Assembly: GCF_008195825.1 (NCBI RefSeq) | Contig: NZ_CP043329.1 | Span: 2,790,001-2,854,000 of the forward strand | Direction: 5' to 3' | Length of the DNA stretch: 64,000 nucleotides | From: Pedobacter aquae | Lineage (GTDB): Bacteria > Bacteroidota > Bacteroidia > Sphingobacteriales > Sphingobacteriaceae | Shown: piece by piece, positions 10,372 to 41,404 of the stretch | Numbering within the stretch: position 1 is the first letter of the stretch | How the letters are laid out: the number at the start of each line of letters is the position of its first letter | Translations under genes and position numbers: made by a program | Notes under the pieces: generated by a model | What the model saw: the letters and a program-made list of their open reading frames with translations, nothing else | Told to the model about the DNA's origin: nothing | Database searches by the model: none

Positions 10372-11070
10372 TTAAATTTTCAATTTTAGTTTCTTAACTT
10401 CTTTTGGTTTCATAAGCGTCACTTGCATTTTTATGTCTTCTAAAGGTCGGTTATTTCCATCAACCTTTACATCAGCGATAGCGTCTACCATTTCTAATCC
10501 TTTTACAACTTCCCCAAAAACGGTATAATTTCTATCTAGGAAAGGGGTACCACCAATGCTTTTATAAATTTCTCTTTGGTAGGCTGGTATTTTTTTACCT
10601 TCTAATCGATATTGCTCTATCTGATCAAGCTCTTTATCTGTATACTTTTTACCTTGCACAATGTAAAACTGACATGAGCTAGATGCTTTAGCCGGATTGT
10701 TATCTCGGGCAGCAGCCAAAACTCCTCTTTTATGAAAAAGGGTAGTATCAAATTCAGCATCAACACGGTAACCTAAATCTCCTTCGCCTAAAACATCTCC
10801 TGCTTTAGCTGTTTTTGATGTTGGATCTCCGCCTTGTATCATAAAATTCTTAATAACTCGGTGGAAAAGTGTTTGATTAAGCGTTCCATCTTTAACTAAT
10901 TTCAAGAAATTATCTCTATGCTTTGGTGTTTGATTGTACAACATCAAATAAACCTCACCTTTGCTTGTACTAATTTTTACATATTGATTTTTAGGTTTTG
11001 CTGCAAAAAGAAAAGTACTTATACAGATGAAAATGAATATTAAAGAGGTGGTTTTTGATAATTTATACAT
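10372..11070 (-). CDS. Secreted cyclophilin-type peptidyl-prolyl isomerase
   Basis: 232 residues: signal peptide (about 1-23) then a cyclophilin domain with FHRVIKNFMIQGGD and the SSCQFYIV motif, plus an insertion in the middle (QIEQYRLEGKKIP) seen in Bacteroidota cyclophilins. It would catalyse proline isomerisation in the periplasm to help fold exported proteins. The upstream gap is unusual: a 256-bp array of 8-bp repeats begins 2 nt before its ATG, so its leader or promoter lies in repeat DNA or it depends on read-through from the gene at 11325-11672. Confidence 0.93.
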   Translation of the reverse strand: MYKLSKTTSLIFIFICISTFLFAAKPKNQYVKISTSKGEVYLMLYNQTPKHRDNFLKLVKDGTLNQTLFHRVIKNFMIQGGDPTSKTAKAGDVLGEGDLGYRVDAEFDTTLFHKRGVLAAARDNNPAKASSSCQFYIVQGKKYTDKELDQIEQYRLEGKKIPAYQREIYKSIGGTPFLDRNYTVFGEVVKGLEMVDAIADVKVDGNNRPLEDIKMQVTLMKPKEVKKLKLKI

Positions 11071-11072
11071 GT

Positions 11073-11328
11073 TTAGTTTGTTAGGTGGTTAGTTGGTTAG
11101 GTGGTTAGTTGGTTAGGTGGTTAGTTTGTTAGGTGATTAGTTGGTTAGGTGGTTAGTTTGTTAGGTGGTTAGGTGATTAGTTTGTTAGGTGGTTAGTTGG
11201 TTAGGTTATTAGGTGGTTAGGTGATTAGTTGGTTAGGTGGTTAGGTGGTTAGTTGGTTAGGTGGTTAGTTTGTTAGGTGGTTAGGTGATTAGTTTGTTAG
11301 GTGATTAGTTGGTTAGGTGGTTAGTTAC
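11073..11328. repeat. Minisatellite of 32 tandem 8-bp units
   Basis: An uninterrupted, perfectly phased array of 8-bp units. With 1=TTAGGTGG, 2=TTAGTTGG, 3=TTAGTTTG, 4=TTAGGTGA, 5=TTAGGTTA, 6=TTAGTTAC the order is 31212134 21314312 51421121 31434216. The plus strand has no C except in the last unit. Units 9-14 and 23-28 are the same 48 bp (11137-11184 and 11249-11296), showing block duplication. The array fills the whole gap between two genes: it begins 2 nt before the cyclophilin start codon and its last unit contains the stop codon of the 115-residue gene. Confidence 0.97.
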
Positions 11329-11672
11329 AAATCAAATAAATTTTCAAAATAGGAGACAATCAAAGATTTTAAAATCATTTCTTGTTCTAATAAAGTGTAA
11401 TTAGGAATGGGTTTTATTTTTTTCCAATGTGGCCAGCCGTCTTGGTCTAAACCTTCTAACTTGTAAAAACCCATTTCAGAAAATAGACGACAAGTTGCAA
11501 TATGCATCAATTCTTCTTTTTGTCTTTTACTAAACTTTTTTGGGCCTTTTCCTAACTCTTGTACACCAATAAGAAAGAGAATTACTTTCATATCTGGCTT
11601 TTCATTATCAAAATCGCTAGCCAGAATTTGCTGTAACTTATTAAACTTATGATTGATTTCTGCTGGTATCAT
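11325..11672 (-). CDS. Conserved-type small cytosolic protein, function unknown
   Basis: 115 residues, no signal peptide or membrane segment. Mixed charged helical sequence with GVQELGKGPKKFSKRQKEE and a C-terminal aromatic stretch. I do not recognise the family beyond a Bacteroidota-type small hypothetical. The start ATG at 11672 lies 5 nt after a TATCTTTG -7 element, implying a leaderless or nearly leaderless message. Its stop codon is embedded in the last unit of the 8-bp repeat array, and the cyclophilin gene follows on the other side of the array. Confidence 0.75.
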   Translation of the reverse strand: MIPAEINHKFNKLQQILASDFDNEKPDMKVILFLIGVQELGKGPKKFSKRQKEELMHIATCRLFSEMGFYKLEGLDQDGWPHWKKIKPIPNYTLLEQEMILKSLIVSYFENLFDL

Positions 11673-36801: not shown

Positions 36802-39800
36802 GTGAACATCAGAGAGATTTTAGAAAGATATAAGCAAGATAACCGGGTTGAGCAATTAACCCAGGCCTTACAGCAAAAGAAATCGCGTGTACATTTAAAG
36901 GGTTTAATTGGTGCTCAAGATGCTTTTATTGTGGCCGCCAATTATTTTCTTACCCATAGAAATATGGTTTTTGTACTGCCAGACAGAGAAGAAGCTAATT
37001 ATTTTCAGGCCGATTTAGAGAACCTTATGGATAAAGATATTCTGCTTTTTCCATCGTCTTACCGCAAATCTTTTGATTTTACCCAAACAGATTCTGCCAA
37101 TGTACTTTTAAGAGCTGAAGTATTGAACGAGCTTAACCATACACATGAGTATGGAAATTTAATTGTTACCTACCCAGAAGCATTAGCAGAAAAAGTTATT
37201 GATAGAAACGCACTTGAAAAAAACACGCTTGAAATTATCTTAAACAACAAACTCAGCATTGATTTTATCAACGAGTTTTTAATTGAATATGATTTTGAAC
37301 GTACCGATTTTGTATATGAACCAGGACAGTTCTCGGTTCGTGGAGGTATTGTAGATATATTTTCTTTCTCTAACGAGTTACCTTATCGGATAGAGTTTTT
37401 TGGCGACCATGTAGAATCTATCAGAACGTTTGAAATAGAAAGTCAGCTTTCTGTAGAGCAAGTAAAATCTGTTACCATAGTTCCAAACGTACAAGCTAAA
37501 TTTCTTACAGAAAGCAATATCTCTTTATTAGAATTTATTGATGACGATGCAGCTATTTGGTTTAAAGATGTGGTTTTCACTTTAGATACCATCAAAACCG
37601 GATACAAAAAAGCTACAGAACTTTGGAAAGCTTTATCAGCAAATGATAAGCAAACTAACCCAGACTGGCTAGACCCAAAGTTTTCTTTTACGGATGAAAA
37701 ACTACTGGCAGACCAACTGAGCGATTTTCCTCTGATAGAATTTGGGAAGCAGTTTTTTTATCCGGCAACGCAAACAATCTTGTTTGATACTAAGCCTCAA
37801 CCTTCTTTTAATAAAGATTTTAATCTGCTTATCCACAACCTAAAAGAAAACGAAAAGCAAAAAATAGAGAATTTTATCCTAACAGATTCTTCTAAACAAC
37901 AAGAACGTTTATTTGCCATTATAGAAGATTTAGGCAAGCAAATTACCTTTACGCCTATCAATATATCTATCAGAGAAGGTTTTATAGATTACGAGCAAAA
38001 ACTGGCTTGTTATACAGACCATCAGATATTTGACCGTTACTATAAATACAAGCTTAAAAGAGGCTATACTAAATCTCAAGCCATCACCCTTAAAGAACTT
38101 AGAGATTTAAAACCCGGAGATTTTATCACCCATATAGACCATGGTGTTGGTAAATACGGTGGCTTAGAAAAGGTTGAAGTAAACGGTAAAATACAGGAAA
38201 TGATTAGGCTTATTTATGCCGATAATGATTTGCTGTATGTAAACATCAACTCTTTAAACCGCATTTCTAAATATTCTGGTAAAGATGGGCACATTCCTAA
38301 AATGAATAAATTAGGAACCGATGCTTGGGATAAACTCAAGAAAACAACAAAAAAAAAAGTTAAAGACATTGCCCGCGACTTGATAAAACTTTATGCCCTG
38401 CGTAAAGCACAAGAAGGTATGGCTTTCTCGCCCGATACTTATTTACAAAACGAACTGGAAGCTTCTTTTATTTATGAAGATACCCCAGATCAAGAAAAGG
38501 CTACCGCCGATGTGAAAAAAGACATGGAATCGCCACACCCAATGGACCGTTTAGTTTGTGGCGATGTTGGCTTTGGAAAAACAGAAGTAGCTATCAGAGC
38601 AGCTTTTAAAGCCGCTACAGATGGTAAACAGGTTGCTATTTTGGTACCTACAACCATTTTGGCTATGCAACATTACAAAACCTTTAATGAGCGTTTAAAA
38701 GATTTCCCGGTAAGGATAGATTATATCAACCGATTTAAATCTACCAAGCAAGTAAAAGATACTTTAGAAGCCTTAAAAGCCGGAAAAGTAGATATCATTA
38801 TTGGCACCCATAAATTGGTGAGTAAAGATGTTAAGTTTAAAGATTTAGGCCTTTTAATTATAGATGAGGAGCAAAAATTTGGTGTTACCGTTAAAGAAAA
38901 ATTAAAGCAGTTTAGAGCCAATGTAGATACGCTTACGCTAACTGCAACGCCAATTCCGCGTACTTTGCATTTTTCTTTGATGGGTGCTCGGGATTTATCT
39001 ATCATCCAAACGCCACCACCAAACCGCCAACCTGTTTTAACAGAGCTACATGTTTTTAATGAGAAATTGATTAAAGAAGCTGTAGAGTTTGAGTTAGATA
39101 GAGATGGGCAGGTTTTCTTTATCCATAACCGTGTTGCAGATTTACGTCAGCTAGGTGGTTTAATACAAAAGCTGGTTCCAAAAGCAAGAATAGCTATTGC
39201 ACATGGTCAGTTAGAAGGCGATAAGCTTGAAGATATCATGCTTGATTTTATTGAAGGAAAGTATGATGTTTTAGTTGCTACTACCATTATTGAGGCTGGT
39301 CTTGATGTACCAAATGCCAATACCATGTTGATTAACCATGCACACATGTTTGGTTTAAGCGATTTACATCAGATGCGTGGGCGTGTTGGCCGCTCTAACA
39401 AAAAGGCGTTTTGTTATTTGTTAAGTCCGCCTTTGTCTACCCTTACGCCAGAAGCCAGAAAGCGTTTAAGCGCCATAGAAGAGTTTTCTGATTTAGGTAG
39501 CGGATTTAACGTGGCTATGCGAGATTTAGACATCCGCGGAAGCGGAAACCTTTTAGGTGCAGAGCAAAGTGGTTTTATTGCCGAAATTGGCTTTGATATG
39601 TACCACAAAATCTTGGATGAAGCTATACAAGAACTTAAAGAAGAAGAGTTTAAAGGTTTATTTCAGGATGAAAAACCTCGTCCTTTTGTAAGCTTTACCC
39701 AAATAGAAACCGATATGGAACTGCTTATTCCTGATGAGTATGTAACCAATATCCAAGAACGTTATAATTTATATACCGAGCTTTCTAAAATGGAGAATAA

Positions 39801-40152
39801 AACAGCTTTAGATGCTTTTGAAAAAGAACTTCATGACCGTTTTGGACCACTACCAAGACAAGTGAAAGACCTACTCAGAACGGTAGAATTACAATGGATT
39901 GGAAAAGAAATAGGCTTAGAAAAAATCAGCTGGAAAAAAGGAACTTTAAGGGGTTATTTTATTACCGATAAACAATCTAAATATTTTGAAACCGATATGT
40001 TTGGTAGTATCCTACAATATGCGCAACAGCATCCACGTAAAGTAAACCTGAAAGAGGTTAAAAACACCTTGCGTATTGCTGTTGAAGACATCAAAAATAT
40101 TGATGAAGCCATTTGGGCACTAGAGCAAATGAGAGACCCGGTAGTGATCTAG
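36802..40152 (+). CDS. mfd: Transcription-repair coupling factor, GTG start
   Basis: 1116 residues: UvrB-like N-terminal module, RNA polymerase-interacting domain (about 430-510, with PGDFITHIDHGVGKYGGLE), SF2 translocase with Walker A GDVGFGKTE, DEEQ box, RecG-like TRG region (about 890-960, MRDLDIRGSGNLLGAEQSGF) and a C-terminal domain. It removes stalled RNA polymerase and recruits UvrAB to template lesions. A TAA directly precedes GTG 36802 and the first ATG is at about codon 55, so GTG is the start. Its TAG stop is directly followed by a repeat block. Confidence 0.97.
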   Translation: MNIREILERYKQDNRVEQLTQALQQKKSRVHLKGLIGAQDAFIVAANYFLTHRNMVFVLPDREEANYFQADLENLMDKDILLFPSSYRKSFDFTQTDSANVLLRAEVLNELNHTHEYGNLIVTYPEALAEKVIDRNALEKNTLEIILNNKLSIDFINEFLIEYDFERTDFVYEPGQFSVRGGIVDIFSFSNELPYRIEFFGDHVESIRTFEIESQLSVEQVKSVTIVPNVQAKFLTESNISLLEFIDDDAAIWFKDVVFTLDTIKTGYKKATELWKALSANDKQTNPDWLDPKFSFTDEKLLADQLSDFPLIEFGKQFFYPATQTILFDTKPQPSFNKDFNLLIHNLKENEKQKIENFILTDSSKQQERLFAIIEDLGKQITFTPINISIREGFIDYEQKLACYTDHQIFDRYYKYKLKRGYTKSQAITLKELRDLKPGDFITHIDHGVGKYGGLEKVEVNGKIQEMIRLIYADNDLLYVNINSLNRISKYSGKDGHIPKMNKLGTDAWDKLKKTTKKKVKDIARDLIKLYALRKAQEGMAFSPDTYLQNELEASFIYEDTPDQEKATADVKKDMESPHPMDRLVCGDVGFGKTEVAIRAAFKAATDGKQVAILVPTTILAMQHYKTFNERLKDFPVRIDYINRFKSTKQVKDTLEALKAGKVDIIIGTHKLVSKDVKFKDLGLLIIDEEQKFGVTVKEKLKQFRANVDTLTLTATPIPRTLHFSLMGARDLSIIQTPPPNRQPVLTELHVFNEKLIKEAVEFELDRDGQVFFIHNRVADLRQLGGLIQKLVPKARIAIAHGQLEGDKLEDIMLDFIEGKYDVLVATTIIEAGLDVPNANTMLINHAHMFGLSDLHQMRGRVGRSNKKAFCYLLSPPLSTLTPEARKRLSAIEEFSDLGSGFNVAMRDLDIRGSGNLLGAEQSGFIAEIGFDMYHKILDEAIQELKEEEFKGLFQDEKPRPFVSFTQIETDMELLIPDEYVTNIQERYNLYTELSKMENKTALDAFEKELHDRFGPLPRQVKDLLRTVELQWIGKEIGLEKISWKKGTLRGYFITDKQSKYFETDMFGSILQYAQQHPRKVNLKEVKNTLRIAVEDIKNIDEAIWALEQMRDPVVI

Positions 40153-40232
40153 ATTGACTGAATTAACGTAAATTGAGTCAGTTGATTGACTGAATTAACG
40201 TAAATTGAGTCAGTTAATTGACTGAATTAATG
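40153..40232 (+). repeat. 2.5 tandem copies of a 32-bp inverted-repeat unit
   Basis: Units at 40153-40184 and 40185-40216 differ only at their last base; a half unit (40217-40232) follows. Each unit is itself an inverted repeat: TGACT-G-AATT ... AATT-G-AGTCA. The array starts at the base after the mfd stop codon and runs into the promoter of the ATPase gene. Confidence 0.95.
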
Positions 40233-40252: not shown

Positions 40253-41404
40253 ATGAAAATTCAAAGATTAGCTGCTTTACAACTGGCGAAACGTATCCAG
40301 CAAAATAAAGTTTTACTGCTATTTGGTACTCGTAGGGTGGGTAAAACGCATTTATTAAAATCTATTGAAAGCTCTTTAAATATACCCTTCTTACACCTTA
40401 ACGCCGAAGATACTGATACAGCAACGCTATTAGAAAATAGAAGTATTGCCAATTATAAAAGGTTATTAGGAGAGAATCGCTTATTAATTATAGATGAAGC
40501 ACAAGTAATTCCAGAAATAGGCAAGATATTAAAGTTGATGATTGATGAATTTGAGGATTTAACCATTATAGCCACAGGTTCATCTGCTTTTGATTTATCA
40601 AACCAAACCGGCGAACCTTTAACAGGAAGAAGCTATACCTATTATTTATACCCTATAGCCCAAGCCGAACTTGCACAACATGAGAATATATTGCAAACAA
40701 GACAAAACCTGGAAGAAAGATTAATCTACGGCTCTTATCCTGAGATTTTCTCTTTAGATAGTCTTAAAGAAAAAGAGGAATATTTAAAAAATCTGGTAAA
40801 CTCTTACCTTTTAAAAGATATTCTAAGGTTTGAGAACATCCAAAACAGTAATAAAATTTTTGATTTGATGAAACTTATCGCTTACCAAGTTGGTGCAGAA
40901 GTTTCTTTAGACGAGTTGGGTAAGCAGTTAGGCATGAGTAAAAATACCGTTGAGCGCTATTTAGACCTTTTAGCTAAAGTGCAAATCTTATTTAAATTAA
41001 GTGGTTACAGTTCTAATCTTAGAAAAGAGGTCACAAAATCCTCTAAATGGTATTTTTTTGATAATGGAATTAGAAACGCCATCATTAATGATTTTAGACC
41101 TTTAGCAATAAGGCAAGATACTGGCTTACTTTGGGAAAATTATTGTATTTACGAGCGTATTAAGATAAACCGCTACCAAAAAACAGATGCTGAGTTTTTC
41201 TTTTGGAGAACGTATGACCAGCAAGAAATAGATTTAATAGAAAAAGTAGGTCATAACATTCATGCTTTTGAGTTTAAATACAGCAACCACAAGAAGGTAA
41301 AAGTACCTGTCTTCTTTCAAAAAAATTATCCCGATGCTGAGTTTAACCTCATCCATCGGGATAATTATATAGATTTTATTGTGGCAGAACTACTTAAACC
41401 TTAA
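40253..41404 (+). CDS. AAA ATPase with DUF4143 (AAA_14 family)
   Basis: 383 residues. Walker A GTRRVGKTHLL (about 26-36), Walker B LLIIDEAQ (about 82-89), sensor ATGSSAFDL, then a winged-helix-like segment (LGMSKNTVERYLDLLAK) and C-terminal DUF4143 with a nuclease-like motif region EIDLIEK and AFEFKYS. The family is common, often mobile, and of unknown role. Its 3' end overlaps the convergent DUF3570 gene by 15 nt. The near-leaderless promoter and repeat array upstream suggest individual regulation. Confidence 0.92.
   Translation: MKIQRLAALQLAKRIQQNKVLLLFGTRRVGKTHLLKSIESSLNIPFLHLNAEDTDTATLLENRSIANYKRLLGENRLLIIDEAQVIPEIGKILKLMIDEFEDLTIIATGSSAFDLSNQTGEPLTGRSYTYYLYPIAQAELAQHENILQTRQNLEERLIYGSYPEIFSLDSLKEKEEYLKNLVNSYLLKDILRFENIQNSNKIFDLMKLIAYQVGAEVSLDELGKQLGMSKNTVERYLDLLAKVQILFKLSGYSSNLRKEVTKSSKWYFFDNGIRNAIINDFRPLAIRQDTGLLWENYCIYERIKINRYQKTDAEFFFWRTYDQQEIDLIEKVGHNIHAFEFKYSNHKKVKVPVFFQKNYPDAEFNLIHRDNYIDFIVAELLKP

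What the first reader, a model, noticed from the sequence alone, without database searches (positions are those of the whole stretch)
11073..11328. 256-bp, perfectly phased 8-bp minisatellite filling a gene-to-gene gap
Thirty-two 8-bp units of six types, with almost no C on the plus strand, start 2 nt from the cyclophilin ATG and end inside the stop codon of the neighbouring gene. A 48-bp block of six units occurs twice (units 9-14 and 23-28), so the array has grown by block duplication. The plus strand carries repeated GG tracts separated by TTAG, like telomere DNA, and might form two-layer G-quadruplexes; the transcript would be G-free and unstructured. Length changes would alter the spacing and expression of the cyclophilin gene.
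Basis: partly seen in the sequence, partly recalled or inferred. Interest (0 to 1): 0.66.

Follow-up and report, generated by a model that had tools for sequence, protein, structure and literature searches.

The report
Octamer repeat arrays anchored at genes
The repeat beside the cyclophilin gene is one of about forty related 8-letter repeat arrays scattered through this bacterial genome, most of which start right at the edge of a gene and run outward in one fixed direction; it is probably slippage-made spacer DNA rather than a switch, but the one-way placement recurs in unrelated bacteria and is unexplained.

Summary
The array is real: 256 bp, 32 phased octamers, one C, 2 nt from the cyclophilin ATG, overlapping the neighbour's stop codon, with a 48-bp block present twice. 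It is not a lone minisatellite: BLAST finds 43 matches in the complete 3.85-Mb genome (a Pedobacter, inferred). Three-unit arrays occur in 8 of 18 genomes of the genus (own included) and 0 of 42 other relatives. At the cyclophilin gap 4 of 14 genomes of the genus carry an array (about 32, 11, 5 and 3 units); 10 have none there.

The striking feature is polarity. In the own genome the 5' edge of the G-rich strand lies at a gene boundary in 25 of 34 arrays, the 3' edge in 3 of 34 (discordant 22:0). The array often supplies the adjacent stop codon (TAG in 15 of 19 genes; 89 of 514 in a genome sample). In titled non-Pedobacter loci the discordant count is 23:0. Units without GG obey the rule (7:0), so G-quadruplexes are not needed.

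Rehm et al. 2015 reported the same placement rule for GGGNATC heptamers and left it unexplained. I call this a new variant of that kind. Most likely: slippage and tandem duplication in place, encroaching on the gene until selection stops it. No effect on cyclophilin was tested.

The parts
11073..11328 (+). octamer array, 32 units of TTAGKTKR type (31 clean, 11073-11320); G-rich strand is +
11137..11184 (+). first copy of the duplicated six-unit block (units 9-14)
11249..11296 (+). second copy of the duplicated six-unit block (units 23-28)
10372..11070 (-). cyclophilin-type peptidyl-prolyl isomerase gene (232 aa); the array's 5' edge is anchored 2 nt from its ATG
   Evidence: PF00160, E 2.7e-42
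11325..11672 (-). 115-aa gene of unknown function (no Pfam match); its stop codon lies in the last repeat unit

Best explanation
The array is one member of a dispersed family of octamer (TTAGKTKR) simple-sequence arrays in a Pedobacter clade. Shown: 43 genome matches, sites largely shared with related species, lengths that differ between species, an internal block duplication, and an array edge fixed at a gene boundary with the G-rich strand running outward from the gene. Inferred: the arrays turn over in place by replication slippage and tandem duplication, mostly in gaps without divergent promoters, where they are close to neutral. They encroach on the gene at the 5' side of the G-rich strand until selection on the coding sequence stops them. 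At the 3' ends of genes the array's own TAG then often serves as stop codon; at the 5' ends the array stops a few nt before the ATG. At cyclophilin this has put a 256-nt unstructured, G-free spacer between two genes that are nearly adjacent in most related species. Why encroachment is one-sided is not explained; an effect of replication direction is possible but weakly supported.
For: Family and sites; flanks of 34 of 41 own loci match an array-bearing locus of a relative (two gaps counted twice). Length change and array-free gaps at the cyclophilin locus. In-situ turnover: orthologous sites more alike in unit composition. Block duplication. Polarity: 25 versus 3 of 34, discordant 22:0, uniform placement expects 5.6 each; convergent gaps 10 versus 1 of 12. 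Stop takeover: TAG 15 of 19 versus 89 of 514, Fisher p=1.8e-8; in 13 of 19 the distance (-4 or +4) puts the stop on the TAG position of the first or preceding octamer. Cleaner units near the gene: 38 of 66 anchored arrays against 17, 11 ties, p=0.0065.
Against: Encroachment was not observed directly; pre-array gaps were seen at two loci only. Slippage alone predicts no polarity. The cleanliness gradient is not significant in non-anchored arrays (10 against 4, 5 ties, p=0.18). The C-terminus of the 462-aa gene is the same with and without arrays, so there nothing was eaten. The link to replication direction depends on the boundaries used: 24 of 34 (p=0.024) or 21 of 34 (p=0.23).
Confidence: 0.45

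Rival explanations
1. Selection at the RNA level sets the orientation: before starts only the G-free, unstructured leader orientation survives; after stops only the C-free orientation survives, because a C-rich, G-poor trailer could load Rho. The arrays tune translation or 3' ends.
For: Gene-sense RNA of the window array folds with energy 0. Start-anchored arrays are C-rich in the sense strand and stop-anchored ones G-rich. Only 4 of 34 own arrays lie between divergent genes and none of these has its 5' edge near a gene.
Against: A long G-free leader before cyclophilin should itself load Rho. In convergent gaps both genes are equivalent, yet the anchored one is nearly always on the 5' side (10 versus 1 of 12). 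No transcript data were available.
Confidence: 0.2
2. The arrays descend from a mobile element (MITE- or REP-like): array arms as inverted ends around a palindrome or a gene, inserted into short gaps and then expanded.
For: Inverted pairs pointing inward from both genes in several gaps; one gap has a 23S rRNA intervening-sequence-type gene between two inverted arrays; a TTAG-headed palindrome in 16 of 139 array tails, shuffle control 0.35 per set, 3 of 139 heads, none in the 624-kb sample at 3 mismatches or fewer.
Against: At the cyclophilin gap the palindrome-bearing relatives have no inverted arm. No transposase was found beside the arrays in what I inspected, but none was searched for genome-wide. 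Other congeners have other units at the same gene edges. In viral contigs only 9 stretches match.
Confidence: 0.15
3. End addition: a telomerase-like or other polymerase extends 3' ends leaving genes at breaks, as interstitial telomeric repeats are thought to form in eukaryotes (recalled), and the ends are then joined.
For: Polarity is the same at stops and starts, and inverted pairs look like two extended ends joined head to head. DRT10 reverse transcriptases make tandem-repeat DNA in bacteria (passages of PMC12632851).
Against: The only RVT_1 match in the own genome scores best as UG5-nitrilase. Locus-specific unit types shared between species argue for local copying. A non-coding template was not searched for.
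Confidence: 0.1
4. A G-quadruplex or length switch that controls cyclophilin.
For: GG tracts are present; array length differs between four species.
Against: Quadruplex gain is no larger than in shuffles, and GG-free arrays are placed alike.
Confidence: 0.05

Closest known systems
GGGNATC heptamer repeats of Xanthomonas and Nostoc (Rehm et al. 2015, PMC4692102; abstract and sections 13, 14, 16 read)
   Same: Dispersed intergenic short-unit arrays; nearer the 5' neighbouring ORF irrespective of its orientation; antisense before starts, sense after stops, overlapping stop codons; inverted pairs; conserved gene context with length variation; rare between divergent genes; no known function.
   Different: Unit is 8 nt, not 7, with at most GG and no GGG; up to 32 units here; other phylum; stop-codon takeover counted here; the rule also holds here for GG-free units.
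TAACTGA heptamer repeats of Beggiatoaceae, Cyanobacteria and five Bacteroidetes (MacGregor 2015, PMC4679880; passages read)
   Same: Dispersed, mostly intergenic, within a few nt of start codons, stop codons in all frames, some overlapping the end of an ORF.
   Different: Other unit, two to six copies in the main genome, mostly before starts; no general 5' polarity rule was stated in the passages seen.
BrickBuilt MITE minisatellite of Porphyromonas gingivalis (Klein et al. 2015, PMC4596501; abstract and outline only)
   Same: Dispersed intergenic tandem repeat in a Bacteroidota genome.
   Different: 23-nt unit, leader and tail with inverted ends, 49-591 nt from coding sequences.
DRT10 tandem-repeat cDNA (PMC12632851; passages read)
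   Same: Short tandem-repeat DNA made in bacteria.
   Different: Protein-primed cDNA in phage defence with a ncRNA and a SLATT protein; not shown to enter chromosomes in the passages seen.

Membership tests
GGGNATC heptamer repeats (Rehm) | 7-nt unit with GGG or GGGG tract | tested here: not met
   8-nt TTAGKTKR units with at most GG
GGGNATC heptamer repeats (Rehm) | nearer the 5' neighbouring ORF irrespective of ORF orientation | tested here: met
   25 versus 3 of 34 arrays, discordant 22:0
GGGNATC heptamer repeats (Rehm) | same gene context in a related species, with length variation | tested here: met
   flanks of 34 of 41 own loci match array-bearing loci of relatives; lengths differ
GGGNATC heptamer repeats (Rehm) | preference for four units | not tested
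   unit numbers were not tallied for a peak at four
GGGNATC heptamer repeats (Rehm) | G-quadruplex by CD spectroscopy | not testable with these tools
   only energy prediction
TAACTGA repeats (MacGregor) | TAACTGA unit | tested here: not met
TAACTGA repeats (MacGregor) | stop codons in all three frames of the forward strand | tested here: met
   stops in all six frames of the window array
BrickBuilt MITE | 23-nt repeat unit | tested here: not met
BrickBuilt MITE | leader and tail with inverted-repeat ends | tested here: inconclusive
   flanks printed and read by eye; palindrome in 16 of 139 tails only
BrickBuilt MITE | at least 49 nt from coding sequences | tested here: not met
   25 of 34 arrays within -28 to +10 nt of a gene
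REP element with RAYT transposase | palindrome with a conserved tetranucleotide head | tested here: inconclusive
   TTAG-headed palindrome in 16 of 139 tails, not in the window array
REP element with RAYT transposase | RAYT gene in the genome | not tested
   no search made
DRT10 product | DRT10 reverse transcriptase in the genome | tested here: inconclusive
   one RVT_1 match, best PADLOC model RT_UG5-nitrilase; no DRT10 model was used
DRT10 product | template ncRNA and SLATT protein | not tested
   no search made

The most novel reading that the evidence does not exclude
A strand-polar DNA process shared by many bacterial phyla lays down or extends 7-8-nt repeats outward from gene edges (or eats towards genes from one side only), independently of G-quadruplexes, of the gene's transcription direction and largely of unit sequence, rewriting stop codons as it goes. 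These arrays would be its footprint.
Probability: 0.15. Interest if true: 0.85.

Novelty: new variant of a known kind. Interest (0 to 1): 0.52.

Why it matters
An unexplained 2015 observation, that intergenic heptamers in Xanthomonas and Nostoc sit at the 5' neighbouring gene whatever its direction, is seen here in a Bacteroidota genome with another unit, in loci of unrelated taxa, and without GG tracts. That argues against the G-quadruplex as the common cause and makes a replication, repair or encroachment mechanism testable by counting. It also shows simple repeats taking over stop codons.

Tried and rejected
Lone minisatellite: rejected by genome-wide matches. Phage-borne repeat: only 9 stretches in viral contigs match four units. 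G-quadruplex as cause of the placement: not supported. Telomerase-like RT: the single RVT_1 match is UG5-nitrilase-like; whether relatives carry it was not searched. Homogenisation of arrays across the genome: not favoured. Polarity of other tandem repeats oriented by G>C: 30 versus 6 of 104 near a gene; I give this little weight, because on inspection several of those units have no stop codon on the reverse strand, so a gene reads through them, whereas TTAGKTKR has stops on both strands. Replication direction: suggestive only. Density of the family in ordinary gaps: 1 of 538 sampled gaps, the window's own, is no fair estimate, because I placed the samples knowing the array loci. Nine paper searches were made; none of their listings showed a paper on these octamers in Pedobacter, and only the four papers cited were opened; the listings are short and the library lacks most subscription journals. 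A joined multi-gene query to find more array-free sites was considered and not run.

Rows dropped: arrays with fewer than 4 exact units in the main counts, 8 Pedobacter loci, 14 arrays lacking a gene on one side and 1 inside an ORF, three more untitled loci (L177, L188, L192) left out as Pedobacter by my own match of gene sizes; other untitled loci there may still be Pedobacter, so I rely. One search failed on a script error and was redone. Gene G006 could not be read.

Full report
What is there. Positions 11073-11328 hold 32 phased octamers (31 clean, one degenerate), one C in 256 bases, with a six-unit block present twice. Reading the minus strand, the order is a 115-aa gene without a Pfam match, the array, then a cyclophilin (PF00160) whose ATG is 2 nt away. 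The neighbour's stop codon lies inside the last unit.

It is not alone. The window is part of a complete 3,854,044-bp chromosome. BLAST with the array finds 43 matches in it; stretches with at least three exact units number 46 and sum to 5,001 bp, six of them sub-arrays of one gap. Three-unit arrays occur in 8 of 18 genomes of the genus, own included, and in 0 of 42 other relatives.

History of the cyclophilin gap. Full-length cyclophilin matches were found in 14 of 18 genomes of the genus, own included. In four (G000, G009, G011, G013) the gap holds an array that begins 2-6 nt from the ATG, with gene-to-gene gaps of 254, 120, 61 and 72 nt and about 32, 11, 3 and 5 units. The other ten have no such array, with gaps of 36, 25, 81, 25, 10, -14, 2, 80, 177 and -4 nt; in two of these (80 and 177 nt) the neighbour is a different gene. 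The 177-nt gap (G001) holds an A-rich degenerate repeat instead. So the array arose or grew in what is mostly a near-closed gap, within one clade, and its length has since changed.

Polarity. Each array was oriented by its TTAG strand and both edges measured to the nearest gene boundary; near means -28 to +10 nt. In the own genome (34 arrays with at least 4 exact units) the 5' edge is near in 25 and the 3' edge in 3; uniform placement in the same gaps expects 5.6 for each; discordant cases are 22:0, p=4.8e-7. The other species give 16 versus 1 of 22 (G009), 8 versus 1 of 15 (G011) and 12 versus 0 of 19 (G013); many sites are shared, so these are not independent. Both kinds of edge occur: the stop of a gene reading into the array and the start of a gene reading away. 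In convergent gaps, where the two genes are equivalent, the count is 10 versus 1 of 12. Several gaps carry two arrays, each starting at its own gene and pointing inward.

Is this an artefact of ORF calling? The window array has stops in all six frames, so an ORF can end in such an array from either side, yet it does so mostly from the 5' side. At the 462-aa/284-aa gap the C-terminus and N-terminus of the two proteins agree with congeners that lack the array, so those genes are not merely truncated. Gene starts elsewhere are first-ATG calls.

Stop codons. Of 19 stop-anchored genes in the own genome 15 end in TAG, 2 in TGA, 2 in TAA, against 89 TAG of 514 in a 624-kb sample (Fisher p=1.8e-8). 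In 13 of the 19 the distance of -4 or +4 places the stop on the TAG of the first exact octamer or the one before it. In other taxa the count is TAG 18, TGA 8, TAA 3 of 29.

Beyond Pedobacter. From those 80, less 8 Pedobacter, 62 usable arrays in 58 loci give 27 near at the 5' edge versus 4 at the 3' edge, discordant 23:0, p=2.4e-7; convergent gaps 5 versus 0 of 11. Anchored loci include Bacteroidales, Saprospiraceae, Chloroflexi, Stahlbacteria, Kiritimatiellae, Desantisbacteria, Moritella and Buchananbacteria (titles). More than half of these arrays (35 of 62) are not near a gene at the 5' edge. Adding untitled loci gives 41 versus 10 of 89, discordant 32:1. Split by unit, arrays without GG give 7:0 (n=23, p=0.016), mixed ones 20:1 (n=54), TTAGGTGG-rich ones 5:0 (n=12, p=0.062). 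Many are built of one perfect unit and probably arose independently (inference).

Dynamics. Unit composition is more alike at orthologous sites than between sites of one genome (0.63, n=55, versus 0.50, n=595), and flanks of 34 of 41 own loci match an array-bearing locus of a relative. Gene-proximal halves hold more exact units in 38 of 66 anchored arrays, distal halves in 17, with 11 ties (p=0.0065); in non-anchored arrays 10, 4 and 5 of 19 (p=0.18). A palindrome headed by TTAG marks 16 of 139 array tails; its exact 25-mer occurs in G009, G011 and G013, near matches in G000 and in six genomes of other genera, mostly in another context. At the 284-aa gene (metallo-beta-lactamase superfamily) some other congeners show other TTAG-containing repeats on the same side of the same genes: (TTAG)n in G003, mixed units at both genes in G001, a heptamer in G016; others show none (by eye).

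Mechanism. I favour slippage and tandem duplication in place, with encroachment on the 5'-side gene stopped by selection. Shown: dispersal, length differences, shared sites, stop takeover, polarity. Inferred: slippage, near-neutrality, encroachment. Why one side only is open. The G-rich strand lies in the lagging-strand sense in 24 of 34 arrays with boundaries from gene strand (p=0.024), which rRNA orientation supports, but in 21 of 34 with boundaries from GC skew (p=0.23). This is a lead only. Four of 34 arrays lie between divergent genes and 12 between convergent ones, against 62 and 65 of 538 sampled gaps.

Comparison. Rehm et al. 2015 (abstract and sections 13, 14, 16 read) state that GGGNATC repeats are 'almost exclusively' at a shorter distance to the 5' neighbouring ORF irrespective of ORF orientation, with inverted pairs, conserved context and length variation, and report no identified function. 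MacGregor 2015 (passages) describes TAACTGA heptamers just before starts and overlapping stops. The window array behaves like these; by unit it is not a GGGNATC repeat, nor a TAACTGA repeat, nor a BrickBuilt MITE (abstract). I call it a new variant of a known kind. It adds that the rule holds for an octamer with at most GG, in distant taxa, and with takeover of the stop codon.

Limits. Gene calls are mine (hexamer-scored ORFs trained on the window for Pedobacter, plain ORFs of 80 aa or more for other taxa). Shared sites and several loci from one genome are not independent. There were no reads, transcripts or experiments. Replichores were estimated from about 624 kb of samples that I placed by hand.

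Noticed in passing
window 40152-40230: A 32-bp unit repeated 2.5 times (97% matches) begins at the last base of the stop codon of an 1116-aa ORF (36802-40152): another repeat starting at a gene's 3' edge.
   Followed up: no
window 40253-41404: A 383-aa ATPase-like ORF just after that repeat gives a weak match to the DnaA domain PF00308 (25.7 bits).
   Followed up: no
L049:1501-2300 (own genome about 2561503-2562302): A 126-aa 23S rRNA intervening-sequence-type gene (PF05635, E 4.4e-40; bAvd-like at 39.7 bits, just under its cut-off of 40) sits between two inward-pointing arrays; the same order is seen in G011 (L248).
   Followed up: partly
L198 and L201 (own genome about 141.5 kb and 917.4 kb): Two copies of a segment with an identical 188-aa ORF without Pfam match, each preceded by a short TTAG array far (about 300 nt) from the start codon.
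   Followed up: partly
L267:922-3504 (own genome about 902 kb): The only RVT_1 match in the genome is a large reverse transcriptase scoring best as RT_UG5-nitrilase of the DRT group.
   Followed up: partly
tails of L057, L058, L075, L265: Beyond the octamers several gaps hold other degenerate, strand-asymmetric short-period repeats, for example runs like CTTCGGACAGCGGTC and TTTTGAATTTTTAATTTT, abutting the next gene.
   Followed up: no
L239, L320, L242 and other array tails: An 18-bp palindrome TCCCGATAGCTATCGGGA after TTAG interrupts or ends 16 of 139 arrays; its core also occurs in other genera of the family.
   Followed up: partly
L050, L294, L273, L250: The gene beside this array appears to end differently in different species (the last codons differ), as if the array edge had altered the C-terminus (by eye).
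   Followed up: no
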